64,000 nucleotides of DNA from Adenophora triphylla var. japonica. Its lineage: Eukaryota; Streptophyta; Magnoliopsida; Asterales; Campanulaceae. The stretch is from assembly GCA_022495995.1 (NCBI GenBank), contig JAFEMH010002577.1, forward strand, positions 265,661 through 329,660. Reading direction: 5' to 3'. The position numbers and the translations under genes are program-made. Shown here piece after piece: positions 31,006 through 53,834 of the stretch (within the stretch, counting starts at the first letter, position 1; every line of letters begins with the position of its first letter). A model generated the notes under the pieces. It searched no databases and had not been told where the DNA came from. It saw only the letters and a program-made list of their open reading frames with translations.

Positions 31006-31351
31006 TAATATATTATACTTCATTTGTCTCAGTTGAAAATGCACAAAATGAATCTTACCCGAGAATTAAGGAGAATGTAAAGTGGATTAAGAGCCCGTGT
31101 TTGGGAGTGATTTTTAGGGCCCAAACGCGTGTTCAACAAGGATATCACGGCAACTCAACGCAATCCAAGGTTTGGCCGACGAAATAGCGTATGCGGTTGG
31201 AGGCCTCAAGACGCGAAAATGTGCATTCCTTAGAATCAGTTCTGCGCCTGCTTTTCTAAGTAATCAGTTTCAAAAAATCAGCTTCAACAGCCAAATCCTG
31301 GATTTGCCCTTATCATTCTCGTTATGCTCTGTTATATAAAGGATATTTCAG

Positions 31352-32608
31352 GAATTTTTTCTCAAATAATACTTTTTTAAAATTTTATTTATCAAAATGA
31401 CTTATTGTTCAAACTTTTTCCCAAAATGTCTCATTTTTTGAAAACTCGCTACACCGTGTAGCGAGTTTATAATTTTTCAATTAAAATCGCTACACGGTGT
31501 AGCGATTTTAAATTTACTAAATTTTATTTAATATTTATGCTTAAAAAAAAAAAAAAACCAAATTTGAAATCGCTACAGCGTCTAGCGATTTCAAATTGAC
31601 ACATTTCTTCCTCAACCAAACAAACAACAAAGTCCATCACGCACACTCAATACTAATAATAATACTAATAATAATAAGTACTTCCTTCGACTCTAAATTA
31701 CAAAATAATAATATAAAAATTATATATTAATAATAAAGAAAACTAAATAGAAATATTATTTTTTCCATCTCAAATAAATATTTTAAAAAATGTACTTCTA
31801 TAAAAAAATATTTTTCATTTCAAAAATAAATATTTCTTTCGACTCAAAATTAATAATCAAAAAATAATACTACATTTTTTATCTAAAAAAATGAGCATTA
31901 CTTCCTTCGTCTCAATGAATATTTTAAAAATTAATACTACTTCATTCGCCTCTAAAATTAATGTTTGTAATGTTAGTGCTTCGTCTCAAAATATGATATT
32001 AATTTTTGAGGCAAATGAGAGTATTATTTTATAAAATATTCATTGAGACGAAGGAAGTAATGCTCATTTATTTGGACAAAAAATGTAGTATTATTTTTTG
32101 ATTATTCATTTTGAGTCGAAAGAAATATTTATTTTTGAAATGAAAAATATTTTTTTATAGAAGTACATTTTTTAAAATATTTATTTGAGATGAAAAAAAA
32201 TAATATTTCTATTTAGTTTTCTTTATTATTAATATATAATTTTTATATTATTATTTTGTAATTTAGAGTCGGAGGAAGTACTTATTATTATTAGTATTAT
32301 TATTATTATTGAGTGTGCGTGGTGGACTTTGTTGTTTGTTTGGTTCAGGAAGAAATGTGCCAATTTGAAATCGCTACACCCTGTAGCGATTTCAAATTTG
32401 GTTTTTTTTTTTTTTTAAAGCATAAATATTAAATAAAATTTAATAAATTTAAAATCGCTACACCGTGTAGCGATTTTAATTGAAAAATTATAAACTCGCT
32501 ACACGGTGTAGCGAGTTTTTAAAAAATGGGACATTTTGGGAAAAAGTTTGAACAGTAAGTCATTTTGGTAAATAAAATTTTAAAAAAGTATTATTTGAGA
32601 AAAAATTC
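31352..32608. mobile_element. 1.26-kb foldback transposon with six internal hairpins
   Basis: The direct repeat gatatttcag (31342-31351, 32609-32618) flanks a near-perfect palindrome centred near 31,980, with arms of about 610 bp. The termini gaattttttctcaaataata / inverse and the 9-10-bp TSD fit a MULE-type foldback. Each arm has three short palindromes: 31444-31466 (actcgctacac core), 31483-31509 (aatcgctacac core) and 31563-31595 (aatcgctacag core). Their partners are at 32494-32516, 32451-32477 and about 32364-32397. No protein is encoded. Confidence 0.85.
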
Positions 32609-32618
32609 GATATTTCAG

Positions 32619-34459
32619 TGTGTCAAACTTGAATCACATACTTGAATCACATAAGTTTCTTCTGAGAATACAAGGCTGGGTAAGCAAGTAAGTTTATTTA
32701 TCATTTTCGTATACAAACTTCATATAAATAGATTTTTTTTAGATGTATGTAGCTGAATTTTTGTTCAAGAACAATATATGTATGCATTGCATTGAAAAAT
32801 CGAGTCTTCAATTCATGTTTGTTTTGCTTTTGGATAATGCACTCTATGTGTTTGTGTTTTTGCCTAAACCAATTCTAAAAGTGTGTTTTTTACCATATAT
32901 TATGTTTCTGTAATGGTTCAGTATAATCTCTGTTATTGGGCTTGAAGTAAACTTTTGTGGTTGAAATTTTATAATGGATTACCCATATATTATGCGTCTG
33001 TAATGGTTTATGCGTCTGTAATGGTTCAGCTTTTTTTTTTTTTTTTTTTTTTTTTTTGGTTGGTACAATAGGAAAGGAAAGAAATAGAAAAGCATAACTT
33101 AACTAAGGACTATCATTTTACAGAATACTTTTTTATAGTTCTATAATTTGATGCAAAAAAGTATGTGCAATGACATAGGTTGATGCAAAAGCTTCTAATG
33201 ATACAAAAGCTTCTAATGATGTAGCTTTAGGTACAATCCAAATTTGATCTCGCAAGCTTATACCCTACCTAATAGTTCATGATTTTACATAATACTCCCT
33301 CCGTCCCTAAAAGATTGTCCTATCGTACATTTTGCAATTATTAAGGAAGAGCTTCACCTTCTAAAGGCACATACCATATGACAATAAACTCGAGCTTTTA
33401 AACACTAGAATCTTGATTAAAATCATTTCGTCAAACATGAATGATGAAAAAGATGCACTTGTAAATTTTATTCCTTTTAGTATTCATCATTTTGATGCTA
33501 ACTTGGGTTTGGTTATGAACAATTAGCTTTTTGTCATACTACGATAAATTGTTTTGATAAAGTTGTGAAATTTAAGATTCATGGCCATCCTGAATTCGAT
33601 TTTGTGGTGGTAAGAAGAGCAAACTTCAAAATTTTGAGATTTAATTGAGATTTTTTAGTACAAGGGTGGAAAAAAATTTGGTGGGTGGGAGAAAACAGGG
33701 GTGTAATGTTTGGGGTTGTTCGATGGTGGTTGGGAAAAATAAATGGGGGTATGTATGGGCATCTCAATGCAAATGCAAGGTCATTCGTCATAGGTATTAA
33801 AATAAAAATTTGATACATATGGACCACTATTCACACAGGGTATCAAATTGTATCTATAATGATAGATATCAAAATCAAATTTTGTTATCTATTTAAAAGA
33901 TACTAGCATCTACAATAGCCAGTATCAAAATAATAACTCAAATTTTTATTTTCACATTATTAATTTTATTAATCATTAAAAACATTTTTAATAATTAAAT
34001 ATTTGTAATAATTAAATATGAATAATTTTAAATAATCATTAATAAAATTAAGTTTAAATAAAAAATAAACAATCTTTTTGAAATGTGAAATGGTATTATT
34101 CGGTAGCTAGATTACATTTGATAAGATAATAATTGAATTTAAATTAAAAAATAAAATAAAAAATCCAATATCTTATCGTTGACACGTGACATGTTTTTAT
34201 TTGTTAGCAAGATTACTATTAAGATAAAATAACTTACCAGAAATCTTTTCAAAAAATTTTATTATCCTTTAAATATGATATATCATATCATTAGTGTCAA
34301 CTATCATTTCAACATTAAAAATCGTTTTCTATCATTTTATCTTCTCATGAACTTCCTACGAATTTTTTTGGTGAAGCATGATCAAGATGATGACAATAGG
34401 CGTCGTCGTTCGAGCAAAGCTATTGCTCTAATCACTGCTACTCATGTAATTCAAGAATA
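32619..34459. other. Non-coding AT-rich stretch
   Basis: A T27 run lies at about 33,031-33,057. A lone Stowaway left end (tactccctccgtccctaaaa) lies at 33,294 without a visible partner. A run of short tatcaaaat/gatactagc phrases (33,790-33,950) may be the 5' subterminal part of the PIF/Harbinger element that follows. No gene seen. Confidence 0.5.
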
Positions 34460-34710
34460 GGAAGAAATGTCCCCATGGAATGGTTCGGTGGGTGACCATA
34501 ATTATATACGTAGTCATATAGAGAGAGTGCAAATGCACTTTTACATGAACAATACTTTGCTAATCCATGTATGTACATGTCTGATACATTTCAACGTCGT
34601 TTCAGAATGCATAAACATGTATTTGAAAAGATCATGTGTGACGTTTTCAACCACAATGACTATTTCATTCAGAAAGATGATGCTGTGGGCTGACCCGGAT
34701 TTTCCACAAT
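34460..34710 (+). pseudogene. PIF/Harbinger transposase relic, 5' piece
   Basis: With frame changes, this reads like the N-terminal part of plant HARBI1-like (DDE_Tnp_4) proteins: a GDHNYIRSHIER segment, then FQRRFRMHKHVFEKI and FNHNDYFIQKDDAVG. Stops and shifts show that it is dead. The match stops exactly where the CACTA element begins and resumes at 40,024 and 60,206. Confidence 0.7.
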
Positions 34711-35105
34711 CACTACAAGAAAACTGGTCTTTCGCGATTGCTTTTGGCGATGGCAAAAAAAGCAGTCATGTTTGAGTATATAAGGAGACGGCCTTTGTGA
34801 CTGCATTTAGTGCAGTCACAGTAGGCTAGCGTGATGGCTAAGCATTCACGGATGCCATCACATTATATATTTTTTCCTCTAGCGCCAACAACGTAGTCCG
34901 GGCGGGAATGCAAAATTCTAATTTTTATCAAAGGCGATGGCTTTAGCAATCGCGTTTTATAAAAATATTAAATTAAATAATTTTAAAATTGGATTTTTAA
35001 TTTTTTTAAGGCGACTGCTTTTGCAATCGCGTTTAAATTAAAAAATTCAATTACACAATTAAAAAACTTTTTTTTTTTTAACTTATTCACGAATCCACAA
35101 CTGAT

Positions 35106-35340
35106 TTGATTTTTAGAAAACCCTTTGTTTTCTTTTCTCTCTCACTCTCGTTACCTCTACCTCTACCTCTTCCCTCTCAGGCAGGCAACGGCGATTCCTC
35201 TGGGGCAATTCCTCTAGGGCGATTCTTCCTCCGGCTCCGGCGTTCTTCCTCCGGGCATCAGGTGACTCTCTCTCTCTCTCTCTCTCTCTCTCAGGGGCGG
35301 ATCCAGGGCAGAGGTGGGTAGGGCTTTTTCTTATAATTCA
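35106..35340 (+). promoter_or_regulatory. Leader-like CT-rich segment of the CACTA element
   Basis: The sequence holds ctctctctcactctc, cctctacctctacctcttcc, a (CT)n run at 35,266-35,293 and several cctccggc phrases, like a plant 5' UTR. It lies directly upstream of the captured RAE1 exon at 35,491 and could drive or lead a chimeric transcript. No TATA box is assigned. Confidence 0.35.
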
Positions 35341-35490
35341 AATCCCAACAATTCTACCGAGGTACAATCTCTTTATTTTATGTTTTCCATTGTTTATTTT
35401 GATTTCTGGTTATTGCAGTTGAATGAACTGAGACGTAATAATTGAGAATTCGTTTGTTTGATTGGTTTATATTTTATGTATTTTGTGTAG

Positions 35491-35577
35491 ATTATGTCGC
35501 CTCCTACTGATTCTGTATCAAGCCTTTGTTTTAGTCCCAAGGCCAATTTCCTCGTTGCTACTTCTTGGGATAACCAG
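35491..35577 (+). pseudogene. RAE1: Captured RAE1 exon (first WD repeat)
   Basis: The exon lies between AG and GT and reads SPPTDSVSSLCFSPKANFL then VATSWDNQ. This is the start of the WD40 propeller of RAE1, a nuclear-pore mRNA export factor. Both splice sites are intact. The second RAE1 piece is at 36,852-36,992. Confidence 0.8.
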
Positions 35578-36157
35578 GTTTGTTCTTCAACCACTCAGTT
35601 GCAATTTATTTTTCCGTTTTGAATGTTGTTTGTTTAATTTAATCCCCAAATACCTAATTGCAGCAATCATGTTTGGCTTACTACCTTATTTCTTAATTTA
35701 TGCTGCTTTTATTTCATGCTTTTTGTATTTATTGTTGGCGTACAGATATTCCTGAAAATTTTCAGTTAGTGGTACGGTCAATAATCTACCTTTTCAAGTT
35801 GTATGAGTATCTTGTTTTGAGTTTTTCGCAGCCTAATGGGGGTTGTGTGATACTGCGATCAGGCCACATCCAGCTTTGATTGGTCATTCGTTGTACTTAT
35901 ACTTATAGCTCATTAAAATTGAAAGTTTTAGTTATTAGTATGGGCATATCTAGTTTCCAATGTCAAATTATTGTTGATAATATGAAAAAACACTTATTTT
36001 GAGCTTTCTGCAACTTATAGCAAGGTTTTCATGTGTTTATGGGGACCTAAGTTATTTCATCTCTTTCCCTCACATTCACATGCACTGGGAGCTACTTATT
36101 ACGGTTCCACAATTTTTTTGTTAATATGCTTTTATTATACACTGTTGATGAAATTAG

Positions 36158-36734
36158 GTATATTGATAGCAGTGGAGTGAGTGGAACGATTCCTCAAGAA
36201 CTGTCAAATCTGAAATCCCTCATCACTCTGTAAATATCTCTTCTTCTCGAAATAGACACCTTCAGATCACTAATTTAACGAACATGTTGATTCTTATCGT
36301 GATAATCTGAGTATACGGAGTTTCTGCAGGTGGGCATCTGATAATCTGTTTACTGGGAAACTGCCCGAGTTCTTTGGAACTTTTACAACCCTTGAAACCC
36401 TGTAGGCAACCCGAGACGCAATTTTTTTGTTTGTTTTGACTTATAACTGTTTTAGTATTGTCCTAACAGCCTTTTGGAGTAACAGGAGGCTCGAAGGAAC
36501 AACTCTTGAAGGTCCGATTCCTAAAAGTTATGGTGCTCTAACAAAACTCAATGATCTGTAAGATGCCTCACACTTCCTATAATACTTCCATTACTTCAAC
36601 ATCGAGCAATTTCAGTAAAGTAGATTCATTCTTTTCGTGTTGTTTAGGAGAATTGGTGATCTCAGTAAAGAAGATTCGTCTCTTGGTTTCTTGGTTAACT
36701 TGACAAGTCTAATATGTTCGAATTGCAAAACAAG
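36158..36734 (+). pseudogene. Captured LRR receptor-kinase exons
   Basis: There are four exons with intact GT-AG borders: 36158..36229, 36330..36401, 36486..36557 (each exactly 72 bp, one leucine-rich repeat per exon) and 36648..36734. They read YIDSSGVSGTIPQELSNL, NLFTGKLPEFFGTFTTL, RLEGTTLEGPIPKSYGAL and RIGDLSKEDSSLGFLVNL. This is the pattern of the extracellular LRRs of the At1g56130/At1g56140-type receptor kinases (LRR VIII-2). No signal peptide or kinase is present. Confidence 0.8.
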
Positions 36735-36851
36735 GTCAGTTTTCTCCCTACAGAGATACTCTGGGCAGTCATCAAGTGTTGTGCAATTATTTTTCCATAT
36801 GTCTCTGTGTTTTTCCTTGCTCTCTTAAACCACATAGCTCCTTTCCTTTAG

Positions 36852-36992
36852 GTACTGGGACTTGAGACAACAAACTCCAGTGCATACTCAACAACTTGCT
36901 GAGTGCTGTTATACACTTTCAGTGAGACATCCTCTGATGGTTGTTGGCACAGCAGATAAAATCTTATAGTGTTCAACTTGCAGAACCCTCAG
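36852..36992 (+). pseudogene. RAE1: Captured RAE1 exon (later WD repeat)
   Basis: The exon reads YWDLRQQTPVHTQQL and LSVRHPLMVVGTADK, typical of a middle RAE1 repeat, then loses one base so that the following residues shift and meet a TAG. Splice borders are intact. The exons between this and the 35,491 piece in a real RAE1 gene are missing and are replaced by the LRR fragment. Confidence 0.82.
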
Positions 36993-38086
36993 GTACTGTT
37001 GTACTGACTCTTTAACTACAATGTATGGCCAAATCTGGCGTATCTAGTCACTGAATAAAAGTTAACTGCATGCACTGAACTCCATTCCTTCTATTGAACA
37101 AAGAATACATGAAATGGAGTCTGTGGGATGAACAATTGCAGGAAGGATATTTTTGTTGAGGAATTATTTCCCGCAGAAAGGGAGTAAGCTTTTCTTTCAT
37201 AATACCCATAATACTTCCTTATGCAATATGTTAATTATTCTAGCTAATGAATTCCGTTACTTTGGCAGGTAAGCCACATCGAAAAAGGAACCAATCCATC
37301 ATCCCTGAATGAAATTTATTTCACCGGAAACTACCTTGCCACAGGTTAGACTCACTTTCTTTCTCTCTTTTTTTTTTTTTTTTTTTTTTGGTAAATTTAC
37401 ATTATTTTTAAAACCATTTTTCGGATGATTTCTTGCAGGATCTTTTTCTCGTTCTGCTGTTAACTTCATGGCTGGTTGTAATACAGCAGTATCTAATATT
37501 GTGATGTCTATGGTTGTTTTACTAACTATATACGTAATTACCCCATTATTTAAGTATACGCCAAATGCCATACTCGCTTCCATCATCATATCAGTCGTGG
37601 TGGGGCTCATCGACTTTGATGCAGCCATTCTCATCTGGAAAATCGATAAACTTGATTTTATAGCTTGTATGGGAGCCTTTTTTGGTGTGGTTTTTGTTTC
37701 TGTTGAAATTGGCCTCTTAATAGCGGTAAGAATTGCAGCTCAGTTTTATTTATATGTGTGTTTATATGTATCATTTTTTGTTATTTTTTTAATGAATATT
37801 TGATCTGATAAAACCAGGTCTCGCGAAATTCTCTTACAAGTAACAAGGCCTCGGACTGCAGTACTTGGGAAGATCTCAAGGACCAGTGTATACAGAAACA
37901 CACTGCAATACCCTGATGCAACTAAGGTTCCCGGAGTTCTGATTGTCAGAGTTGACTCTGCTATCTATTTCTCCAATTCCAACTATATCAAGGAGAGGTA
38001 TAATAATTCGCTCTTTTTTATTCTTCACAGTCATTGGAAATACACTCCGTAGAGTATTTCAAATATAGTGTACGGAGTAGTATATA

Positions 38087-38317
38087 CTCCCTCCATCCCA
38101 TTACAAAAATCACAAAATGGGTTTTGTACAAAAATTAAGTGTATAGTGGAGCAAGTGTAGTATGAAAAGTGGGGTAGGGACTAATAAGTTGATAGATGAT
38201 TATGACAAGTGGGCCCCATGAATAAAAAAGTATTAAAAAAATTTCTTTTTGGGCTTCCCTTTTGTAATAGTACATCAAAATGGGGCTTTAGTGCCTTTTG
38301 TAATAGGTCGGAGGGAG
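38087..38317. mobile_element. Stowaway-like MITE in captured SULTR intron
   Basis: Ends ctccctccatcccattacaa and the inverse ctccctccgacctattacaa, flanked by TA/TA, 231 bp. Confidence 0.85.
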
Positions 38318-38461
38318 TATATCTTACACTTCATTATATTTCATCGTTTTTGCAGGATTTTGAGATGGCTAACTGAGGAGGAAGAAGCATTGAAAGAACA
38401 TAATCAACCTAGCATCCAATATTTGATAGTCGAAATGTCACGTAAGCCGCATTTTCAACTA

Positions 38462-38572
38462 CTCCCTCCGTTTCCTCTGTCCTAAAATGAATGTCCAATT
38501 TTTATTTTCAAATTTGCGCTTGAACAAGAGCAAAGTTGAAATTTTTTGGACATCATTTTGGGAGGAGGAGGG
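38462..38572. mobile_element. Short Stowaway foldback MITE
   Basis: The hairpin pairs ctccctccgtttcctctgtc...aaaatgaatgtccaa with ttttggacatcattttggga. The left flank is TA. It is the same subfamily as 20,210-20,302 and lies just downstream of the SULTR exon ending 38,441. Confidence 0.7.
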
Positions 38573-38585
38573 CGCATATCTTGTG

Positions 38586-38848
38586 CTTCCTCCTTCCCTT
38601 TCATATTGGTCACATTTTCTTTTTTTTCTGCCACATTTCTTTGTGGCCACTTACAAAACCCAATGCACATTAATGGCTCACTTTCCTATTACATCCCTAC
38701 CTGATAAAGAAAATTACAATCTTTCACCTTCACAATATTAAGTAAAGCAAGGGTATATATGTAAAATGTTAAGTTAAAGAAATCATCTATTATACTTTGT
38801 TAATCCTAGAGCTTTTGTCTAGTGGCCAAAAAAGTGGGACGAAGGGAG
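38586..38848. mobile_element. Stowaway-like MITE
   Basis: Ends cttcctccttccctttcata and ...aaaagtgggacgaagggag, then TA. The arms include ttggtcacattttctttttt against aaaaaagtgg..gccaaa. It is the third MITE in the same captured intron. Confidence 0.6.
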
Positions 38849-39063
38849 TATTTTCTTTCATTATATATTTTCCATGATTTTTCAGTTAGAAAGATTCAAT
38901 CTTGATTCAACTGCTTGTTTATTTAACTGATATTTGCAGCTGTTAATGATATAGACACGAGTGACATTCATGCTTTGGAAGAATTATATAGGAATCTCCA
39001 AAAGAGAGATATACAGCTAGTTCTAGCAAATCCTGGGCAAGCTGTGATTGATAAGCTTCATGC

Positions 39064-39231
39064 ATGTTGGTGGCAGTGTTGCTCCTGTTATAGTTTCTAC
39101 ATCTTCTGCACCTCCAGTATCTGCACCTGCTGCTATTGAGGAGATTGATTGATGAAAACAGCAAATCTTGTTGATGATGATATGGGTGATGAACACATGG
39201 GTGATGAGCACTTAGGTGATGATGAAGACTA
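39064..39231 (+). pseudogene. Unassigned low-complexity coding-like tail
   Basis: One frame reads GGSVAPVIVSTSSAPPVSAP then a stop. Another, just after, reads MGDEHMGDEHLGDDED and stop. The Asp/Glu-rich end could be the last exon of the parent CACTA transposase. I am not sure. Confidence 0.3.
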
Positions 39232-39555
39232 GTACAATATATTAAAATATTTTGGTCTCTAGTGGTATTATATTAGGAAGATAACTGTTGATTTCTGTTG
39301 ATCGAATTATGTGACGGAAGATGTCCATTTTTTTGAGTTTATGATGGTGGATGTGGATGCCACTCTTGAACAATTTTAAACCTTGATGTATGCTTTTGAA
39401 AATATTATATATTTACTAGTTATTATTATTTATGTATCAATTAATAGTATTGTTTTGAATATTAATCATCATTATTTTTAGGAGAAAAATATTTTATATA
39501 AATAAGCAGTGAGTTTACGTGATTGCAAAAGCTCTTATATTACATTGATATTTGC

Positions 39556-39775
39556 GATTGCATTTGCCGTCTCCTTTTCAAACCTAAGGCGATTGCATTT
39601 GCCGTCACCTTTTCAAAACCTAAGTCGATTGCATTTGCCGTCTCCTTCTTTAAAACCTAAGGCGATTGCATTTGCCGTCTCCTTTTTCAAAACCTAAGGC
39701 GATTGCATTTACCGTCTCCTTCTTTAAAACCTAAGGCGATTGCATTTGCCGTCTCCTTTGCTGATCTAAGGCGAT
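39556..39775. repeat. CACTA subterminal tandem repeat, 35-37-bp unit
   Basis: Six copies of a unit containing gattgcatttgccgtctcct and aaaacctaaggc start at 39556, 39591, 39627, 39664, 39701 and 39738. Subterminal repeats bind TnpA-type proteins in En/Spm, so these may be the transposase docking array. Confidence 0.85.
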
Positions 39776-40023
39776 TGCAAATGTAATTAAAATAATTAAA
39801 TAAATAAAATTTTAAAAAACTCTTACGCGATGGAAAAAGCAGTCGCGAAAAATAATTGACAAAGGCGACGGCTTTTTTCAGTCACCTTATCTTTTTCGCG
39901 ACAAGGCTTTACGCGATTGCCATTGCGACGGCTTTTCCCGTCGCGTTAGCCTTCCGCGACGGCTTTAAGGGTTTACGCGACGGCTTTTGGCCATCGCGAA
40001 AGACCAGTTTTCTTGTAGTGAAT

Positions 40024-42233: not shown

Positions 42234-43469
42234 CTACTGTGGCGGCCTGAAATGATAGTCCCACGGACCATGCGGACTGGAGCTGCTCTCTGGAAATGGC
42301 CACCTCTGCCATCTCCCGTCGTCATGTTGTGGTGACATGCGCACCATATAATCGTGAAGCTGCTCCTGCCGATCCATAGTAATGGCAAACTGCATATCCA
42401 TACGAGCCATAAAACGATCCACGTCACTACCACCAAGACTCGCAGCCCCAGAACCAACGCCCTCAGCATCCTCCATATAATCATCATCATCATCATCGTC
42501 GTCGTCCTCCTCAACATATTCCGCTTCTTCCTCCACCTGCTCTTCAACAATTCTAACGTTCATTCCTCTAACCTCCCTCTTATTGCTTTCCAGAGAGTCT
42601 CGAGATATGGGCCTAATTATCTTCACCTTCTCACCCCCAAAGCTCCACTGAACCCCCGCAGCTTTTACCAACCCGGAAATCAATGATGGGTACGGAAATC
42701 CATTTCGCTTACTCTCTCCCATAGCTTGCATATTATCAGAAATGATGTGCCCCAAAGAAATATTTCCCCCGTTGATAATCAAATGAATCAATACTGCATG
42801 CTTCCATGGAACTTTTACATGCTGCGTTGTCGGAAGGATCCTATAGTATACAAATTTATTCACTCCCTTTGCCACTATGTTAAACTGTGTCTCCTTCACA
42901 TACTTGGGCGAACCATCCGGGTCGTTAGTCCATTGGAGTCGGTTACCCTCCAACGTCCTAACCACATCAGCAAAATATACCCGCCAATCCCCAGTTGTTG
43001 CTTTAAAATACTCACATTCCTCCAGTTTCACTCTAGGGAGCCCGTAGAATTTATTAATATCCTCACTCCTGAATTTAATCGTCTTACCCCTCACAAAAGA
43101 ATGCTCTCGGTCCATGGGGATTTTATTCATATTTGAGTAAAATTCCTTCACAATCAAACCATTACCCTCCTCAATAGGCTCGTCACAAAATTGTTTCCAC
43201 TTTCGAGTCCCAAACTTAGATGTAAGCCCGAATGATAAAATGTTAAATTGCCTCTCCGCAATTATGGCTCTATCAGAATGGAAATAAAAGTAGTTTTGAG
43301 ACATGTAATAATTAAACCTCGAGGAATCATGGGTATCCTCGCAACGCAAAAATGATCCGGGGGGAAGGGGAGGAACACTAGATGAACTCTCATCAACCCT
43401 TTGCTTTTTCTTACTTCCCTTTTTCGATTGCTCTTTCGTTTTACCCATTATAAATTCAAGCACAATCAA
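42234..43469 (-). CDS. Env-position ORF of Athila (plant transposon protein family)
   Basis: An unbroken 411-codon frame follows integrase in the same sense. A second Met at codon 9 (MGKTKEQSKKGSKKKQR) may be the real start. It has a basic N-terminus, an aromatic globular middle (YYMSQNYFYFHSDRAIIAER; FVRGKTIKFRSEDINKFYGL) and an acidic run of nine Asp near residue 325. The middle resembles the putative plant transposon protein domain common in Athila-group elements. I see no signal peptide and no convincing transmembrane helix, so calling it an envelope protein is positional only. Confidence 0.75.
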   Translation of the reverse strand: MIVLEFIMGKTKEQSKKGSKKKQRVDESSSSVPPLPPGSFLRCEDTHDSSRFNYYMSQNYFYFHSDRAIIAERQFNILSFGLTSKFGTRKWKQFCDEPIEEGNGLIVKEFYSNMNKIPMDREHSFVRGKTIKFRSEDINKFYGLPRVKLEECEYFKATTGDWRVYFADVVRTLEGNRLQWTNDPDGSPKYVKETQFNIVAKGVNKFVYYRILPTTQHVKVPWKHAVLIHLIINGGNISLGHIISDNMQAMGESKRNGFPYPSLISGLVKAAGVQWSFGGEKVKIIRPISRDSLESNKREVRGMNVRIVEEQVEEEAEYVEEDDDDDDDDDYMEDAEGVGSGAASLGGSDVDRFMARMDMQFAITMDRQEQLHDYMVRMSPQHDDGRWQRWPFPESSSSPHGPWDYHFRPPQ

Positions 43470-44583: not shown

Positions 44584-46614
44584 CTACTCATAATTAGGAT
44601 TTTGGAGATAATGCACCTCCATATCCTCATTTATTCCCACGCCATCATGATACATTTTTAGGCGTTGACCATTTACCTTTAAAACTTTGTCTCCGGAGAG
44701 ACTACCAATCTCAACCGCACCATGCAGATATACCTCCCTCACAATAAAAGGTCCGGTCCACCGCGACCTTAGCTTTCCGAGAAACAACCGGAGACGGGAA
44801 TCAAATAAAAGGACTTTTTGACCAACCTTAAAGTCCTTTCTAATGATCAATTTATCGTGCCAAATCTTCGCTCGCTCCTTATAAAGGAGGTTATTCTCAT
44901 ACGCATCCCTCCTAATCTCATCCAATTCACTCAAGTGTAATTTTCGCTCCTCACCGGAACCCTCCAAGTTCAAATTGAACTTTTTGATCGCCCAATAGGC
45001 TTTGTGTTCAAGCTCAACCGACAAATGACAAGGTTTACCAAACACCAACCGATATGGTGACATACCAATTGGTGTCTTGTATGCAGTCCGGTAAGCCCAT
45101 AACACATCATCAAGCCTTTGACTCCAATCCTTTCTATTCGGGTTCACAGTTTTTTCAAGGATGGATTTTATTTCTCTGTTGGATACCTCGGCTTGGCCAT
45201 TTGTTTGGGGGTGATAAGCAGTCAACACCTTATGGGTGATATGATATTTCTTGACTAACGCTTCGACTGTTTTATTGCAAAAGTGTGTCCCCCTATCACT
45301 AATAATGGCCCTTGGCATCCCAAACTGACACAACACGTTGCTCCTAAGGAAGTTGACCACCACTTTAGAATCATCAGTGCGGGTAGGGATGGCTTCCACC
45401 CATTTGGACACATAGTCAACCGCCAACAAGATGTATAAGAATCCAAATGAATTGGGAAAAGGACCCATAAAGTCGATTCCCCAAACGTCAAAAATCTCAC
45501 AATTTAAGATATAATGTTGTGGCATCTCATCACGGCGACCAATATTACCAACCCTTTGGCACCTATCACATGCCTGACAAAAAGTGGCCGCATCCCGGAA
45601 CAAAGTTGGCCAAAAGAAACCACACTCCAAAACTTTCCTAGCTGTCTTTTTCACACCAAAATGACCACCACACGCATGCTCATGACATAATTTAAGAATA
45701 GAGGACACCTCACTATCGGGAATACACCTCCGAATGACTTGGTCGGCACAATGCCTCCACAAGTTGGGCTCATCCCACACATAATACTTGGCATCACTAC
45801 GGACTTTGTCTCTTTGAGATTTTGACATCCCCGGAGGGAATTTATTAGAGACAAGAAAATTTACCAAGTCCGCATACCAAGGAGCAGCTGAATTAATTGC
45901 CCAAAGAACCTCATCAGGAAACTCACCCCGGATTGGGGCTTGTTTATAAGGCTTGTCCTCCTCCATAACAAGGCGACTCAAATGATCGACAACTAAATTT
46001 TCAGCCCCCTTTTTGTCCTTTACCTCTATATCAAACTCACTCAACAAGAGAATCCATCGAATGAGTCTTGGTTTAGCCTCTTTTTTAGACATCAAGTACT
46101 TGAGAGCAGCGTGATCGGTGTAAACAATGACTTTAGTGCCCAACAAGTAAGACCTAAATTTCTCTAGTGCAAAGACTACTGCCAACATCTCTTTTTCCGT
46201 AGTGGAGTAATTTCTTTGTGCCCCATTCAAGGTCATAGACGCATAGTAAATCACATGCGAGGCACGCTCCACTTTTTGACCCAAAACAGCCCCCACAGCA
46301 TAATCACTCGCATCACACATGATCTCAAAGGGACGAGACCAATCGGGTGCTTGAATAATGGGGGTGGTTGTCAACCTAGACTTCAATTCATTGAAAGATT
46401 GCTTGCAATTATCATCAAAATTAAAATCAACCTCTTTTTGCAACAGAGTGCATAGAGGTGAAGCAATCTTTGAAAAATCCTTTATAAACCTCCGGTAAAA
46501 CCCGGCATGACCAAGAAATGACCGGACTTCACGCACGTTGGTGGGGGTAAGGAAGTGAAGAAATGACATCAATCTTAGCTTTGTCAACTTCAATACCCCT
46601 TTTTGACACAACAT
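44584..46614 (-). pseudogene. Athila pol, RNase H and integrase part
   Basis: A 676-codon frame. It opens with the end of RT ([20 protein letters not shown]), then RNase H ([24 protein letters not shown]), the integrase zinc finger ([18 protein letters not shown]), the DDE core ([36 protein letters not shown]) and a C-terminal domain ([10 protein letters not shown]). All catalytic residues are visible. It is out of frame with the upstream RT: one shift at about 46,535-46,550 and a TGA at 46,649-46,651 separate them. Confidence 0.9.
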
Positions 46615-46648
46615 GACCTAACACGATGCCTTGCTCGACCATAAAATG

Positions 46649-48622
46649 TCATTTTTCAAAATTTAGGACCAAATTAGTTTCAATGCATCTATCCAACACT
46701 AGTCCTAAATGAGCAAGGCATTCATCAAACGAGTCTCCATGGACAGTGAAGTCATCCATGAAAACTTCCATAAATCTTTCCACAAAATCGGAGAATATAC
46801 TCATCATGCACCGTTGAAAAGTTCCAGGTGCATTACATAATCCAAACGGCATTCTCCGATAGGCAAAAGTGCCGAAGGGGCAAGTAAATGTAGTTTTCTC
46901 TTGGTCTTCCGGGGCGATAGGTATTTGAAAATACCCGGAAAAACCATCAAGAAAACAAAAATACGCCCTTCCAGCTAACCTTTCCAACATCTGATCAGTA
47001 AAGGGGAGGGGGAAGTGGTCTTTAAGAGTTACCTCATTTAAGCGGCGGAGGTCAATGCACACACGAATCCCCGTTTGCTCCCGGGTTGGAACCAACTCTC
47101 CTTTCTGATTACGGGAGACTGTGATCCCGCCCCTCTTGGGCACACATTGCGTGGGGCTCACCCACTTACTGTCGGAGATGGGATAGATGATCCCCATCTG
47201 TAGTAGCTTCAGGACCTCCTTTTTCACCGCCTCCATCATTGGCGGGTTAAGTCTCCGCTGCGGTTGTCTCACTGGCTTCGCACCCTCCTCTAGGTTGATC
47301 CGGTGCATACACAAAGATGGACTAATGCCCTTAAGATTGGCAATAGTCCAACCAATCGCAGATTTTCGCTCCCGGATCACCTCAATCAACCTCTTCTCTT
47401 GATCCTCAGTCAAACTACTAGAAATCACCACCGGAAGCGTCTCTCCCTCACCTAGATAAACATACTTAAGGTGCTCAGGGAGAACCTTCAAATCAAGCTC
47501 CGGTGCCTTCTCTATTGATGGAACAAGCTTCTCTACCGGAACCTCCAACTTCATATGACCATAACCCGGTTCTGTAGCAAACATGGCACTCTCTGTAAGA
47601 CCCATAACTGCTTCCTTCATCGAATCTGAGATGTCAAACTCCAAACTAGCATACCCCAAAGCATTCTCTAATGCGGTCTTGAGATCATCATCTCCACTAG
47701 ACACCTCAAATACCTCCTCTACCAATGGCTCGACCACATCAATGAAGCACAATGACTCCGTATCCTTAGGATATCTCATAGAGTCAAAAATATTGAACTC
47801 CATCACTTGGCCATCGAATTCCATTGTCAAGGAACCATTCGCCACATCAAGCTTTGTCCTTGCAGTCGACATAAAAGGCCTCCCCAACAGTATGGGAGCC
47901 TTGGGATCCGACTCCATCTCTAGCACATAGAAATCTGCGGGAAATATCATCTTCCCCACTTTAACCAGAACATCTTCCACCAATCCCTTCGGGTAGGCAT
48001 TCGACCTATCCGCTAGCTGTATCACCACTCTGGTGTCCTGCAATGGTCCCAACTTCAGAGTTTCGAACATCGAATAGGGCATGACGTTGATTGACGCCCC
48101 CAAGTCTAACATCGCCTTGTGCTCAGAAGCATCCCCCAAAGTAACTGGAATCACGAACATCCCTGGGTCACTACATTTCTTAGGCAATTTCCGCTGATAC
48201 ACTGCAGACACATGCTCACTAACCTTACCCTTCTTCTTACTCCTCTCCTTCTGATTCCTCTTCAGAGTACACAACTCCTTCAAGAACTTCGCATACCTCG
48301 GGACAGTCTGAAGAAGATCCAAGAAAGGAATATTAACCTCCAACCTCTTGAAGGTATCATAAATCGCCTTGTCAGGCTCCGGCTTTCGATGCTCTTTCAA
48401 GGACTCGGGGAATGGAACCTCAGGCTCATATATAGGAGCCTTAACCTCTGGTGTACTTTCTGTCTGATCGGGTACCTTCTGTACTGGCTCTGAAATATCA
48501 ACCTCAATCTCCGGTTCCTCTGCTACAACCCTGTCCTGCAGCTCCTTACCACTGCGAAGAGTGATCGCACATGCATTCTGCTTTGGATTCGGTTCAGTCT
48601 GTGAAGGCAGCTTTCCCGAATT
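46649..48622 (-). pseudogene. Athila pol, protease and reverse transcriptase part
   Basis: The open frame runs from just after the TAG at 48,623 to a TGA at 46,649-46,651 that replaces a codon inside RT. Counting from the Met at 48,400, the protease motif LDLGASINVMP is near residue 98. RT motifs are VCIDLRRLNEVTLKDHFPLP, FLDGFSGYFQIPI, MPFGLCNAPGTFQ and the active site FMDDF near residue 545. Typical of the Athila lineage. Confidence 0.9.
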
Positions 48623-49800
48623 CTAAGCCTCCATCCTACCCACAACATCTGCTATCTGTCCCATCTGTCTCTCTAAACCACTGATACTCGTATCAGTCCT
48701 CTGCTGATACTGCTGAAGATTGCTAATACTCGTATCGGTTCTCTGCTGATACTGCTGAAGACTGGTGGATAAGGTGCTCATACTCTGAGCCAGTGTACGG
48801 AACATATCTTCTGTAGATTGTCCCCTGCTTTGCGGTTCTTTGTGCCTTTGTGGCTGCAGTGGTTGCGGTGGTGGCTGTCCAAATGGTGGTCTATAACCCT
48901 GATACTGCTGCTGTTGGTAACCCTGCTGATTACCAAACTGCTGTCCGTGACCACCCGGCTGATTCTGCTGCGGACCTGTACCCCATCTGAAATTAGGATG
49001 ATTTCTCCAGTTGGGGTTATAAGTGTTACCCATCGGTCTCTGTCCCTGCTGCACAAAACCAACTGCATTGACATCCTCCATCTCACCCGTCTGCAACGAA
49101 GGGCACGAATCTGTAGGGTGCGTAATGTCATAGCAAATCCCACACTGCTTCGGTGTCTGTCCTAGAACCAACTACTTTACCATACCCTTAAGATCCTCCA
49201 TATCTGTCTCGAGCTTACTAGTCACCCCACTGCTAGAACCCGCTGCGCTAACCTGCCTCACAGTTGACCTCTTGCCATGGGTCCTCGTACTCTTAGCTAG
49301 CTCCTCGATCAATTTTTTAGCTTCATCAGTGGTCTTATTCAAAATACTTCCCCCACAGCACGAATCCACCAACCTTTTATCCTGAATGGTCAACCCTCCA
49401 TGAAAATAGACGATCAGCTGCTCCTCAGTAAACCCATGATATGGACAACTCCTACAAAGCTTGTGGAAGCGATTGTAGTAGTCGTAAAGAGTCTCATCTG
49501 CCTTTTGCTCCATATTGCTGATGTCTCTCTTCATTATATTAATCTGGTCCTGAAGGAAGAACTCTTCTAGGAATACTTCTTTCATCTGCTGCCATGTCGT
49601 GATGCTATTGGGGGGCAAGTGGTAGTACCAACCATTCGCGTTATCTTTCAGTGTGAAAGAAAACGCCCTCAATAACAGGTGCTCTATCGGAATCGACACC
49701 GGCTTCATACTGGCTGCATTTGCACAAATTGAGAGATGTGCTGATTGGGATCCTCTCCGGGCATCCCTGTGAAGTGCGGTAGCTGATTGAGTAGCCCCGG
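48623..49800 (-). pseudogene. Athila gag, 3' part
   Basis: The capsid-like segment LLLRAFSFTLKDNANGWYYH..TTWQQMKEVFLEEFF (49,708-49,175) ends in TAG at 49,172-49,174. The same frame continues with one zinc knuckle CGICYDITHPTDSC, a Gln/Pro-rich region and two copies of QQYQQRTDTSIS, to a TAG at 48,623-48,625. A shift at about 49,735 separates the first GEDPNQHISQFV segment. The upstream part of gag lies beyond the inner element at 58,469-58,743. Confidence 0.82.
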
Positions 49801-52582
49801 TGTAACGACCCCAACCCTAGGCATCAATTTTTAATATTATATTAAATGCTTTTAATATTCATATTTATTTTATGTGTTCAATTATGTCTTTAAATTCTTA
49901 ATTTAAGATAATTTGGGTGAGAAGTGAATTTGGAACCTCTTGAGAATTTATTGGATATTAAATAAAGAAATTTGGGGAAATAATAAAAATGGAAAAATGA
50001 TAAATAGTGCAAGGAGGTGAATTGAGTAGGATGAATTATTTGGATAAATGAGTTAGATTTAAATTTAAAATGGTGAGGGAAAGCCTTAGTAGAGTTTCAT
50101 GGGGGGCCAAAGTTGTAACCTTCCCTCCCCTTGCCAAGTGTCTTCCCCTAAACCCTCCTCTTACTTTCCCCTTGACCGGCCCCCCCCTCTCTTCATCCTC
50201 CTCACTCTACTTCCTCCTCCTTCATTCATACTTCCTCCTTCCTGAAAGCTTTAGAAATTTCATGGGAGCTCTCAACCCCTCTCCATCACCTCCTCTTACT
50301 CCCTTCCCTCCTTCTCCTTCATTCACTACCATTCTTCATTCTAGAGTAAATAAAGAAAACCTCCATTGAAGTCTCCTTTGCCCAAGCTTTGAAGTCAAGC
50401 ATTTCTTCACCAAAAATCAAGTCTAAGGGCACCATTGAAGTTGGATGACCTAGAGGAAGCCATCTAGCTAGAAAGATCAACATTCCCTTATAAAATCCAA
50501 AGGTGAGTTATTATGATTTCCTTTCTTTGTATGCTCATCAATGAATTGATGTTGTTATTGTTATTAAATGATTGTTTAATGCCTTAGAATGAAAGTATTG
50601 TTCACAAAGGTTGATTAAGAATGTAAGAAAGTGGATTGAACTAGATTTAGAAACTAAGTGTGAAATGTGATATTGTGATGGTTGAATGAGTAGTAAATCC
50701 AAGAGTGAGTAACCTAGGTTGATGTTATTTTGGAGATTTAAATGATCTATAATGATATGGATGAAGTTAGTAAACCTTTTTATGTTCACAAAATAAAGGA
50801 AACTTGGGTTGGGATAAATTGGTATAGCTACATAGGTATTTCCGGCCTTGTTCGAGTGCAGGTTCGGGGCACGAGTCGTGCCACGTGGCACGAGTCGTGC
50901 CTTGGATGGGGACGAGTCGTGACCAAGATTTAAGGGAAGTCGTGCTGGTTGGGGACGCCGAATGCAGGGAAGGTTAAATGGGCACGAGTCGTGCCACGGG
51001 GCACGAAGTCGTGCCACTGGGGCACGAGTCGTGCCCTGCTGGTTACTTTGCATCAATTTCTAAGTCGTTTAAATCAAATCAAACTGGAACCAAAATGAAA
51101 TCTCTTTAACCTAGATTAAAGTAGAATACTTTGGCTATACAATGACATCTTAAGGGATCAAAATGGAATTGTGGAAGTAGTTTAATTATTGTCCCGAAAA
51201 TGGTTGATAGGTTTGAATTGTAACTTCATCAAAATAGTTCCAACTTGGGAAATAGATCTTGAACTTTTATTAAGGTTGTTCGAGGTGGTATAATAATTAT
51301 GTAAGAATGGTTTACGATTCATAGTGGCCTCACCTACTCCATACCTTTGGTGAGTAGTTGCAATAGAGTAAAAGCTATAGGTTTCACTATTGAGCTAATT
51401 GGTAATGGGTATGTATCACTTTGTGGCATGGTTATTCCAAGTTGTGGAATTATTGATTATAGGGTTACCTTAATATCCTAAGTATGGACTATTTGACAAG
51501 TTGTTATGTTATCCCCATGTGTGGATATGTTACTATGTAGTTGTATGGTTATTCCATTTGTGAATTTACTTGTTATCATTCATATTTGTTGATGATACTA
51601 TGCATAGTGTATTACTTAAATGTTGCATTATGGCATTGATTGGCATGAGTATACATTACCATGTTGTTATATTACTATCCCAGTTTGTGGATTTATCTCA
51701 AGTAACTATCATGTGCTTGAGCGTGTTATGTTCGGGTGGGTATGATGGATGCCAATCAATTATTGATTTGTTCAATAAGTGATTGAAGGTACATCATACC
51801 GGTGACCCTTCCCCACTCTGTGGCCACGGGGTGGGGCTTTGCTAACGACCGTATTGACCCAAAAAGCTTTACAGTCTGTTGCGATAGTTGTAAGGAGGGA
51901 CGATATTATTTTTGGGATATTCTAATATAGGTATCCTTTCTTATATGGATCTACGGGGTATGAGACCTATAAGAGGTGAATGTCTTTGGAGGCAATTCAC
52001 CAAAGAGTGGAGTTTTACTCCCACGTTGTACGACTTATTGTTCGGACGGGAAAAGGTAAAATGAGGTAACGTAAGGTGTTTACCGCTTTCATAATGTGTT
52101 ATGTGCTACCATGCTATGTGTTGCACTTTGTTTGGCATCTTCTTTGCATATCATAATAGCTCATTGAGATTTATTCTCACCCCTCTCCCTTTACTGTTTT
52201 AGATTCCGAGGCAGGTGAACCGAACCAGTGAGGCCGGGGATATCATTGTGGACTTTTGCTTTTGGGGCTTGACAAGTTAAGTATAGGAGTGGGTTGTTAG
52301 GAGTATTGGTTAAGTATTCCTCTTTTATAATTTGTATGGAAAACCCTTTTGTTAAACAAATGTTAATTAAGGTTTCCAATGTAATTGATCAGATTATGGT
52401 TTATTAAAGTTGTGGTTGGATTTCCTCTAAGCAGAGATATTACCAATTGATTTTTATTTGGAAGTTTGAAAAATGGTTTTCTTTTAAAGGCAAATAAATG
52501 TTTCAAAAATTTAAATGGATTTTCTTAGTTTGAGCTCCTCTAGCTCGGGATACGCGTTAGGTCCCGGGTTGGGGTGCTCACA
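49801..52582 (+). repeat. 5' LTR of nested element
   Basis: It starts tgtaacgacc and ends ggttggggtgctcaca. It contains a CT-rich leader-like tract (50,110-50,345) and a cluster of ggcacgagtcgtgcc palindromes at 50,868-51,040. The downstream part (51,060-52,580) is AT-rich. It matches 55,676-58,468. Confidence 0.95.
50868..51040. repeat. Palindrome cluster gcacgagtcgtgc in LTR
   Basis: At least five copies or variants of ggcacgagtcgtgcc occur in 170 bp, each able to form a hairpin. The 3' LTR copy is at 56,752-56,925. The two LTRs differ inside this cluster more than around it. Confidence 0.88.
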
Positions 52583-52665: not shown

Positions 52666-53834
52666 ATGCAGGAGTCCGTTCTAATGGCCGGAAGCAAGGA
52701 TGATCAGCGGAAAGTTCTGGGAATTGAAGAAGATTTGGGTATAGGTGGAATTCAGGATGAAGAGATGATGAAATTATTCAGGAAGTTTGTACAGGATATG
52801 GAGACTAGAGGATCAGTTCCGAATCAGCCTGAGGAGTGTCAAAGTGATGGATGGGAAAGGTTTGTGAAGATGAATCCATCGAGTTTTAATGGATATCCGA
52901 ATCCGTTAAAGGCAGAAAATTGGTTAGCGAAATGAATAAGATTTTCGAGGTTATAGAAAGTCGCAACGAAGAGAAAGTTAGGTATGCCGTTTTCAAGCTT
53001 GAAGGTTCAGCTGATCAGTGGTGGCAGAAGTTGAAGGAAAGTTGGGAGCGGGATCATACGCCCCAGATTTGGGATAAGTTCACTCAGCAGTTCGAGGACT
53101 ATTTTATTTCAATGGTTACAAGGGATAAGAAGGAGATTGAATTCTTAAGACTAAAACAAGGAAACATGACGGTGAATCAGTATTCGGTCCGGTTTGAGGA
53201 ATTAGCTAAGTGTTGCCCTCATTTGGCATCGCATGAAGTGAAAAGGGTTCAGAAGTTTGTAACAGGGTTGAGGAGTGAGTTTAGGAAAGAATTATGGATT
53301 GATAGTTTCATCAATTATCAGACAGCCTTAGATAGAGCATATAAGGTCGAGAAGGACATTGAGGAAAATAGTGGAAGGTCCGGAAGTGGGATTAGAAACA
53401 AGCCAAAGTATCTAGGACAAGGATCCAAAGTCATTAGAGGACAGCCAAGTGTTTTAACTTCAGGAAGTGTGAGGGGGAAACTTGTTGTAGCTTCTTCGTC
53501 TAGGCCAATATCCAAACAGTATGGGATGATTTGTAAATTTTGCAAGAAGGTTGGACATACCGAAGATCGGTGTTGGAGTAAGCAAGGCAAGTGTATTAAT
53601 TGTGGAGAGATAGGACACTTTAGGAGAAATTGCCCAAGGTTGCAGCGGGGACGAGCTTCAAGCAGCAGTCAGCAAGGTGGACGACAAAGAGGTAGTACCA
53701 AGAGAGATAGCGAAGGGGAACCAAAAGAGAAGGTCTATGGGCGAGTATGCGTTTCGGGTTCAGGAGAGATAGATCCCTCAGAGGTCACTAGAGGTATATT
53801 CCCTGTCTCAAAAGTTAGGGGTCACATTTTATAG
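52666..53834 (+). pseudogene. Gag of nested element
   Basis: Met codons at 52,666 and 52,684 are possible starts. The reading is KAENWL, then a one-base loss at about 52,925, then SEMNKIFEVIESRNEEKV, LEGSADQWWQKLKESW, FISMVTRDKKEIEFLRLKQG, and two zinc knuckles, CKFCKKVGHTEDRC and CINCGEIGHFRRNC. It ends at 53,834. This is the gag of chromovirus-like Ty3/Gypsy elements. Apart from the single shift it is open over 390 codons. Confidence 0.88.

What the first reader, a model, noticed from the sequence alone, without database searches (positions are those of the whole stretch)
34711..40020. CACTA element that has assembled exons of three unrelated host genes
Within exact 28-bp CACTA ends and an aat duplication lie exons of RAE1 (mRNA export), an LRR receptor kinase and a SULTR sulfate transporter. 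All are on one strand with GT-AG borders kept, downstream of a leader-like CT-rich tract. The gene content is seen directly. That capture was by transduplication is known for CACTA (Tgm, Pack-CACTA). That a chimeric spliced RNA is made is inference.
Basis: partly seen in the sequence, partly recalled or inferred. Interest (0 to 1): 0.9.

Follow-up and report, generated by a model that had tools for sequence, protein, structure and literature searches.

The report
Jumping gene assembled from host-gene pieces
A plant jumping gene carries copied pieces of three known plant genes plus a scrap of a fourth locus, and relatives in the same genome appear to show it before and after one of the pieces arrived, so the pieces were likely copied in step by step during DNA repair; the mixture is predicted to make no working fusion protein.

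Summary
34711-40020 is a CACTA transposon with 28/28 exact inverted ends, an AAT/AAT duplication and family-specific subterminal repeats. It carries exons and introns of RAE1, an LRR-VIII-2-type receptor-kinase gene and a SULTR1 sulfate transporter. (1) The order is RAE1-LRR-RAE1-SULTR: the LRR piece sits inside the RAE1 piece. (2) A fourth locus gives 132 bp. (3) The CT-rich leader is the transposon family's own 5' end. (4) One native splice donor is lost, and frame breaks rule out a long fusion protein on the one full-splice transcript tested. Searches of the window's own 2.48-Gb assembly found donor-type loci in place and four more elements with the same RAE1 capture junction. They form a series: long RAE1 piece (C213); RAE1 with a deletion (C324); LRR in that place (C476, C5059, window). 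The SULTR/3'-end junction was found only in the window copy. Joins carry 3-7 bp of microhomology, together more than chance. I favour stepwise, microhomology-guided gap filling and remobilisation; the timing of SULTR is unresolved. Multi-gene Pack-CACTAs are known (Tgm-Express1), so this is a new member of a known kind; its value is the base-resolved series. Expression could not be tested.

The parts
34708..34710 (.). left target-site duplication AAT
40021..40023 (.). right target-site duplication AAT
34711..34738 (+). 5' terminal inverted repeat, 28 bp
39993..40020 (-). 3' terminal inverted repeat, 28 bp, identical
34711..35040 (.). 5' subterminal region with 6 GCGAYKGC motifs
39501..40020 (.). 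3' subterminal region with 13 GCGAYKGC motifs, including a 37-bp direct repeat
35041..35325 (+). family's own 5' leader with the CT-rich tract (35258-35294); 18 other places besides C5059 match unbroken to element base 604 or 615
35335..36123 (+). captured RAE1 piece 1: 27-bp tail of exon 1 (35335-35361), intron 1, exon 2 (35491-35577), part of intron 2
36117..36123 (+). 7-bp microhomology TTTGTTA at the RAE1/LRR junction
36117..36711 (+). captured LRR piece: exons 36158-36229, 36330-36401, 36486-36557 and truncated exon 36648-36711; donor-type locus C1774:267816-268407
36708..36711 (+). 4-bp microhomology TCTA at the LRR/RAE1 junction
36708..37019 (+). captured RAE1 piece 2: intron part and exon 36852-36992 (frame broken)
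37009..37140 (+). 132-bp piece matching a fourth locus, C6876, nature unknown
37141..37174 (+). filler of unknown origin, also in element C324
37175..37178 (+). 4-bp microhomology AGAA at the start of the SULTR piece (C324 shows the site without SULTR)
37175..39063 (+). captured SULTR1 piece: exons 37269-37344, 37439-37725, 37818-37997, 38356-38441, 38940-39063; 271-bp internal loss at TTGCCA; frame broken in the third exon
39065..40020 (+). family's own 3' end (39065-39161 and 39159-40020 both found in places without SULTR)

Best explanation
This is a 5,310-bp CACTA transposon without a transposase gene of its own that carries DNA copies of pieces of RAE1, an LRR receptor-kinase gene, a SULTR1 gene and one unidentified locus, most likely added one after another when breaks inside the element were repaired by copying host DNA joined through a few matching bases. 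Shown: one RAE1 5' junction is shared by five elements; one RAE1-to-LRR junction is shared by three; loci matching each piece remain elsewhere; the window and 10 of 12 other copies examined have both ends with matching 3-bp duplications. Inferred: (1) RAE1 entered an ancestor and was later deleted internally; (2) a break in that piece was filled with 0.6 kb copied from the LRR gene; (3) SULTR was added on the window lineage, or earlier and lost from its sisters; (4) after capture the element was moved in trans by transposase from a relative such as the 12-kb copy on C1025; (5) the 5' end was swapped with that of another subfamily. The cargo reads in the direction of the element's own gene ends, so a spliced chimeric RNA would be possible but is predicted to encode no long fusion protein.
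For: Ends, duplication and motifs. Junction searches in which all candidates were scored: RAE1-to-LRR, 121 bp, whole in 3 of 7 places (window, C5059, C476); the other 4 hold only one half (RAE1 side C324, C2639, C149; LRR side C1774), the halves overlapping by 7 bp between C324 and C1774. RAE1 5' junction in 5 of 8 places; of the other 3, two are the RAE1 loci on C149 and C2639 and one (C3703, 92%) was not examined; their match begins at base 26 or 28 of 111. SULTR/3'-end junction whole in 1 of 7. Base-level joins with microhomologies of 7, 4, 4, 3, plus 6 and 5 bp at two internal deletions; summed 29 bp against a simulated mean of 4.5, reached by 5 of 20,000 simulations. C213 keeps a long RAE1 stretch, C324 an internally deleted RAE1. 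The RAE1 tree groups window+C5059+C476 (76%), these with C324 (99%), C213 next, the two RAE1 loci together (98%); derived sites shared by five, four and three copies number 3, 3 and 2 of 722 columns, two sites conflict. C1025: Transposase_21, DUF4218 and DUF4216 segments, AGT/AGT, 95% identical in the 3' end. RAE1 and SULTR loci lie 168 kb and 145 kb apart on two contigs.
Against: SULTR does not look youngest: the window differs from both best SULTR loci at 33 of 1,680 sites against 13 of 765 for RAE1, and at 6 sites of 1,322 the two loci share a state that neither the window nor C6075 has, so the true SULTR donor may be unsampled or the capture older. One SULTR join has only 3 bp plus an extra base (P 0.067 alone). 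The microhomology test was made after seeing the joins; the RAE1 5' start and the RAE1/C6876 join were not in it. Support for window+C5059 is weak (55%). Genome hits are lower bounds (40 of 3,971 and 40 of 615 candidates scored). The LRR/RAE1 3' junction, the filler/SULTR junction and the empty site were not searched genome-wide. No expression, small-RNA or transposition data.
Confidence: 0.8

Rival explanations
1. Neighbouring-insertion fusion (the Pack-CACTA model): two CACTA copies flank a host gene, inner ends are lost, and the outer ends move the gene piece.
For: Proposed for Arabidopsis Pack-CACTA and other Pack-TYPE families (PMC8903248 section 9; PMC13317346 section 7). RAE1 and SULTR loci are linked within 145-168 kb on two contigs, fitting local hopping. 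The window's 5' end belongs to a different subfamily from that of C324/C213, joined close to the RAE1 start, as a hybrid element would be.
Against: The LRR piece lies between two RAE1 pieces with 7- and 4-bp microhomology and takes the place of 94 bp present in C324; no exact CACTA end lies inside and the core has 0 GCGAYKGC motifs. It may still explain the first RAE1 capture and the 5' end.
Confidence: 0.2
2. A Helitron or Pack-MULE carrying the gene pieces is nested inside the CACTA element.
For: Helitrons often gather pieces of several genes in one orientation (recalled).
Against: No CTRR-T end with an upstream GC-rich hairpin on either strand of the element by my scan (5 in the whole window). 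The inverted-repeat list shows no long pair around the cargo other than the CACTA ends, and a 41-bp pair inside a SULTR intron (25 of 29 pairs shown). The cargo junctions are spread differently over the copies.
Confidence: 0.03
3. The element is a functional chimeric gene (protein or regulatory RNA that acts on the donor genes).
For: Same strand, 21 of 22 native splice dinucleotides kept, own 5' and 3' ends of the family around the cargo; Tgm-Express1 cargo is spliced (PMC1947982).
Against: On the full-splice transcript the RAE1 frame ends two codons after the LRR junction; the longest ORF (118 aa) is SULTR running into a frame break; RAE1 exon B and SULTR exon 3 are frame-broken; the joint LRR/RAE1-B frame has no ATG before codon 130 of 147. 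No chimera among the 360 proteins listed by three searches, which found 292, 2,337 and 832 matches. An RNA role is untested.
Confidence: 0.06

Closest known systems
Tgm-Express1 of soybean (CACTA, wp allele; PMC1947982: outline and sections 3, 4 part 1 and 6 read)
   Same: CACTA element of similar size (5.7 kb) with exon and intron pieces of five unrelated host genes.
   Different: Tgm-Express1 lies in a gene and its cargo is shown to be spliced into F3H transcripts; here the site is not in a recognised gene, expression is unknown, and related copies that look like earlier stages were found.
Pack-CACTA / Pack-TYPE elements (PMC8903248: passages and sections 9, 10 read; Catoni 2019 not held, seen only as cited)
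   Same: Non-autonomous, CACTA ends, multiple donor loci; that paper also shows a family with a second added insert (Zm-Pack-PIF cluster 18).
   Different: Here the second piece replaces DNA within the first, with microhomology at both ends and a copy without it; the cited model is fusion of neighbouring insertions.
Animal Pack-TIRs, gap filling and FoSTeST (PMC8277862: passages read)
   Same: Template switching to host DNA guided by microhomology (median 2 bp there), multicopy elements with distinct duplications.
   Different: Animal elements; the authors call application to plant Pack-MULEs worth exploring.
Chenopodium CACTA elements with captured Neprosin and AP2 pieces (PMC8978399: outline, sections 6, 9 read)
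   Same: CACTA with host-gene pieces and repeated subterminal motifs.
   Different: Single-gene captures in the 5' region; other ends and motifs (e.g. CACTAGTAGAAA and TATTTGTAACTA in C. pamiricum).

Membership tests
CACTA superfamily | terminal inverted repeats beginning CACTA | tested here: met
   28/28 identical, CACTACAAGAAA...
CACTA superfamily | 3-bp target-site duplication | tested here: met
   AAT/AAT here; of 12 other copies examined, 10 have both ends with matching triplets; C213 lacks an exact 3' end and the C643 stretch shows one end only
CACTA superfamily | repeated subterminal motifs | tested here: met
   19 GCGAYKGC in the two ends, 0 in the core
CACTA superfamily | relatives encode a tnp2-type transposase | tested here: met
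   C1025 copy: Transposase_21, DUF4218, DUF4216 segments; same ends. Activity and intactness not tested
Pack-CACTA | host-gene pieces between CACTA ends, no transposase of its own | tested here: met
   family ends (bases 1-615 and 4355-5310) and cargo account for the element, and no transposase domain was seen in the pieces scanned
Pack-CACTA | cargo is copied, donors remain | tested here: met
   matching loci on C149, C2639, C1774, C6876 without an exact CACTA end in the stretches taken; the exact SULTR donor may be unsampled
Pack-CACTA | element moved after capture | tested here: met
   same RAE1-LRR junction at three sites with AAT, GGA and TTT duplications
Pack-CACTA by neighbouring-insertion fusion | captured DNA bounded by remnants of inner CACTA ends | tested here: not met
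   LRR and SULTR joins show microhomology to host or earlier cargo, no end remnants seen; not decided for the first RAE1 capture
Tgm-Express-like expression | chimeric spliced transcripts | not testable with these tools
   no RNA data; only splice borders and frames checked
Helitron | 3' CTRR with upstream hairpin, no duplication | tested here: not met
   none in the element by my scan; 3-bp duplication present
Pack-MULE | long TIRs and 9-11-bp duplication (recalled) | tested here: not met
   28-bp CACTA TIR, 3-bp duplication

The most novel reading that the evidence does not exclude
Plant CACTA elements take up unlinked genes by serial, microhomology-guided gap filling inside the element, so that later pieces sit within earlier ones and one genome keeps the before and after states of a capture at base resolution; this would be the 'yet undiscovered' route for unlinked genes that a 2026 review allows for (PMC13317346).
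Probability: 0.55. Interest if true: 0.55.

Novelty: new member of a known kind. Interest (0 to 1): 0.4.

Why it matters
How plant DNA transposons pick up pieces of distant genes is still debated. Here one genome holds copies of an element with and without a captured piece, loci matching the donors, and the exact joins, so the repair route can be read from sequence and tested in other genomes. It also shows that apparent 'exon shuffling' can leave tidy splice borders yet no long fusion protein in the predicted full-length transcript.

Tried and rejected
Other collections: the 27-bp end was not found in viral contigs or genome contigs. Protein searches gave no chimera in the listed rows (120 rows each shown of 292, 2,337 and 832); one search listed no RAE1. 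Flanks: joined, they read on in the same frame and look to me (recall) like a decayed PIF/Harbinger gene, but Pfam gave nothing for the join or the right side and one chance-level hit for the left, so I do not claim it. Helitron and Pack-MULE nesting rejected. My first guess of an Amaranthaceae host (recall) was dropped: the first named rows are Escallonia, Lonicera, Camellia and Nyssa (asterids by recall), the top row of each list is unnamed, and the species stays unknown. The C6876 piece and the 34-bp filler could not be tied to a gene; an ORF about 2 kb downstream of the C6876 piece reminds me (recall) of ACD11-binding-partner-like proteins, but Pfam and NCBIfam gave nothing usable. Divergence could not date the SULTR capture. 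RAE1 piece 1 alone matched generic WD40 chains in the PDB; the RAE1 call rests on both pieces together, on a recalled RAE1 probe and on the C149 and C2639 loci, which carry further RAE1 exons by that probe.
Full report
The element. The stretch 34711-40020 has 28 of 28 identical terminal bases in inverted orientation and AAT on both sides. The motif GCGAYKGC is found 6 times in the first 330 bp and 13 times in the last 520 bp, never in the 4,460-bp core, and once in the remaining 58,690 bp of the window. The short end motif alone would not convince: 9 of 100 shuffles also give two matches. The interior pieces gave LRR, Sulfate_transp and STAS matches above cut-off, WD40 just below it, and no transposase. 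In the window's own assembly (G000, 2.48 Gb) many places share its ends: for the first 620 bp, 40 of 615 candidates were scored and all 40 match over at least 480 bases; by the RAE1 5' junction search three of them (window, C5059, C476) lead into RAE1. Of 12 other copies that I took out, 10 have both CACTA ends with matching 3-bp duplications; C213 lacks an exact 3' end, and the C643 stretch shows only one end. One of them, on C1025, is 12,067 bp long, has AGT on both sides, is 86% and 95% identical in its 5' and 3' ends, and has Transposase_21, DUF4218 and DUF4216 segments. It is a plausible helper; activity was not tested.

The cargo. RAE1 exon 1 tail (35335-35361) and exon 2 (35491-35577) come first, then four LRR exons (36158-36711), then a second RAE1 exon (36852-36992), then five SULTR1 exons (37269-39063). 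The two RAE1 pieces together align collinearly to RAE1 chains in the PDB (E 2e-13). SULTR is closest to group-1 transporters (88% over 229 aa to P0121), LRR to the At1g56130/At1g56140 type (88% over 93 aa to P0241). So the order is RAE1-LRR-RAE1-SULTR, not three genes in a row. Introns are kept, so capture was from DNA. A further 132 bp (37009-37140) match locus C6876 at 96%, whose nature is unknown.

Borders. Ten GT donors and eleven AG acceptors of native exons are present. LRR exon 4 stops eight bases before its native donor and continues in RAE1 DNA that offers another GT at 36735. Within SULTR, 271 bp present in locus C149 are missing at a 6-bp repeat. The tract that looked like a host leader is the family's own 5' end: 39 other places match, 18 of them besides C5059 unbroken to base 604 or 615.

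Coding potential. On the one full-splice transcript that I assembled there are 8 ORFs of at least 20 aa. The RAE1 frame stops two codons into the LRR piece. The longest, 118 aa, is SULTR that runs into a frame break. RAE1 exon B is frame-broken in the window but not in the C149 and C2639 loci or in C324. LRR exons and RAE1 exon B share a frame, but it has no ATG before codon 130 of 147. Other isoforms were not tested.

Donor-type loci. RAE1 is at C149:812-815 kb and C2639:68-71 kb, LRR at C1774:267.8-268.4 kb, SULTR at C149:642-644 kb, C2639:216-218 kb and C6075; none of these stretches has an exact CACTA end, and they carry further exons of the same genes. RAE1 and SULTR lie 168 kb apart on C149 and 145 kb apart on C2639, so two of the donors are linked; whether the two contigs are homeologs or haplotypes I cannot say.

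The series. All candidates were scored in the junction searches. The RAE1 5' junction is in five elements (window, C5059, C476, C324, C213); three other places carry only its gene side, two of them the RAE1 loci, the third (C3703) not examined. The RAE1-to-LRR junction is whole in three (window, C5059, C476), with its halves separately at C324, C149 and C2639 (RAE1) and C1774 (LRR). The SULTR/3'-end junction is whole in the window only, 1 of 7 places. C213 holds a long RAE1 stretch; C324 holds RAE1 with a 1.7-kb internal deletion at 5 bp of microhomology. In the window the LRR piece stands in place of the 94 bp that C324 still has, with TTTGTTA and TCTA shared at the joins. C324 also shows the site without SULTR, with AGAA shared. 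Six microhomologies sum to 29 bp; 5 of 20,000 simulated sets reach that, mean 4.5 (the test was made after seeing the joins, and the RAE1 start and the RAE1/C6876 join were left out of it). A tree of RAE1 piece 1 has window+C5059+C476 at 76%, with C324 added at 99%, C213 outside these, the two RAE1 loci together at 98%, and window+C5059 at 55%. In 722 columns, derived sites shared by all five number 3, by the four without C213 3, by the three with LRR 2; two sites conflict. An LTR element that entered C476 has LTRs differing at 35 of 2,507 sites, and one in C324 at 1 of 178, with 5-bp duplications; since the LRR junction is shared with copies lacking the C476 insert, the LRR capture is older than that insert.

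What does not fit. If SULTR were the last capture from C149 or C2639, few differences would be expected. I find 33 of 1,680 sites different from both, against 13 of 765 for RAE1, and 6 sites of 1,322 at which the window keeps the state of C6075 while the other two share another. Either the true donor is not sampled, or SULTR came early and was lost from C5059 and C476, or it was brought in by recombination. I leave this open.

Mechanism. I favour break repair within the element with template switching to host DNA, because the LRR piece is internal to RAE1, is bounded by microhomology on both sides, stands where a related copy holds other DNA, and a matching LRR gene is still in place. The published Pack-CACTA model, fusion of neighbouring insertions (PMC8903248 section 9), may explain the first capture and the swapped 5' end: C324 and C213 share only the first 378 or 368 bases with the window's 5' end, at 81 and 84%, and differ up to the RAE1 start, whereas the window's 5' end belongs to the large subfamily. 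A gap-filling model has been argued for animal Pack-TIRs, and its authors call its use for plants worth exploring (PMC8277862, passages). A 2026 review says that the route for unlinked genes may be undiscovered (PMC13317346 section 7).

Standing. Tgm-Express1 (PMC1947982) is a CACTA of 5.7 kb with five gene pieces spliced in chimeric transcripts; Pack-TYPE elements in maize often hold DNA of more than one locus, Pack-CACTA most of all (PMC8903248 section 10). So the thing is a new member of a known kind. In the listings of six searches of the held library I saw no CACTA series resolved at base level like this, but I read only the listings and the sections named, and one paper shows a two-step family.

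Noticed in passing
window 44584-49708, - strand: Ty3/Gypsy-type retrotransposon ORFs: gag, protease, reverse transcriptase, RNase H, integrase (Pfam).
   Followed up: partly
window 42234-43469, - strand: ORF with Transposase_32 (putative plant transposon protein) domain, E 8e-30.
   Followed up: no
window 50538-51056 and 56419-56940: Two ORFs with the same C-terminal sequence, perhaps parts of the two LTRs of one element around a gag ORF at 52920-53834.
   Followed up: no
window about 31340-32620: Long inverted repeats about 1.2 kb apart, a possible second TIR element.
   Followed up: no
L012, L014, L015: In the three SULTR loci a MITE-like stretch (69-79% like element bases 3764-3851) ends exactly where the match to the captured SULTR piece begins, so the capture breakpoint lies at the edge of a MITE. 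The C149 alignment also runs through the MITE-like stretches of the later introns, so these seem to predate capture.
   Followed up: partly
L036 (C4460), L032 (C6231): Other family members: C4460 has a proline-rich ORF of unknown origin, C6231 a Transpos_assoc domain (probably a deletion derivative); more Pack-CACTAs may be found in this family.
   Followed up: partly
L010 3532-5674 (C476): The C476 element holds about 2.1 kb between RAE1 and its 3' end with no match to the nine copies compared.
   Followed up: no
L034 677 (C2239): A second CACTACAAGAAA lies 0.8 kb upstream of a complete copy; not checked whether it is the same family. On C1025 a similar extra end 6.3 kb upstream has different following bases.
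   Followed up: no
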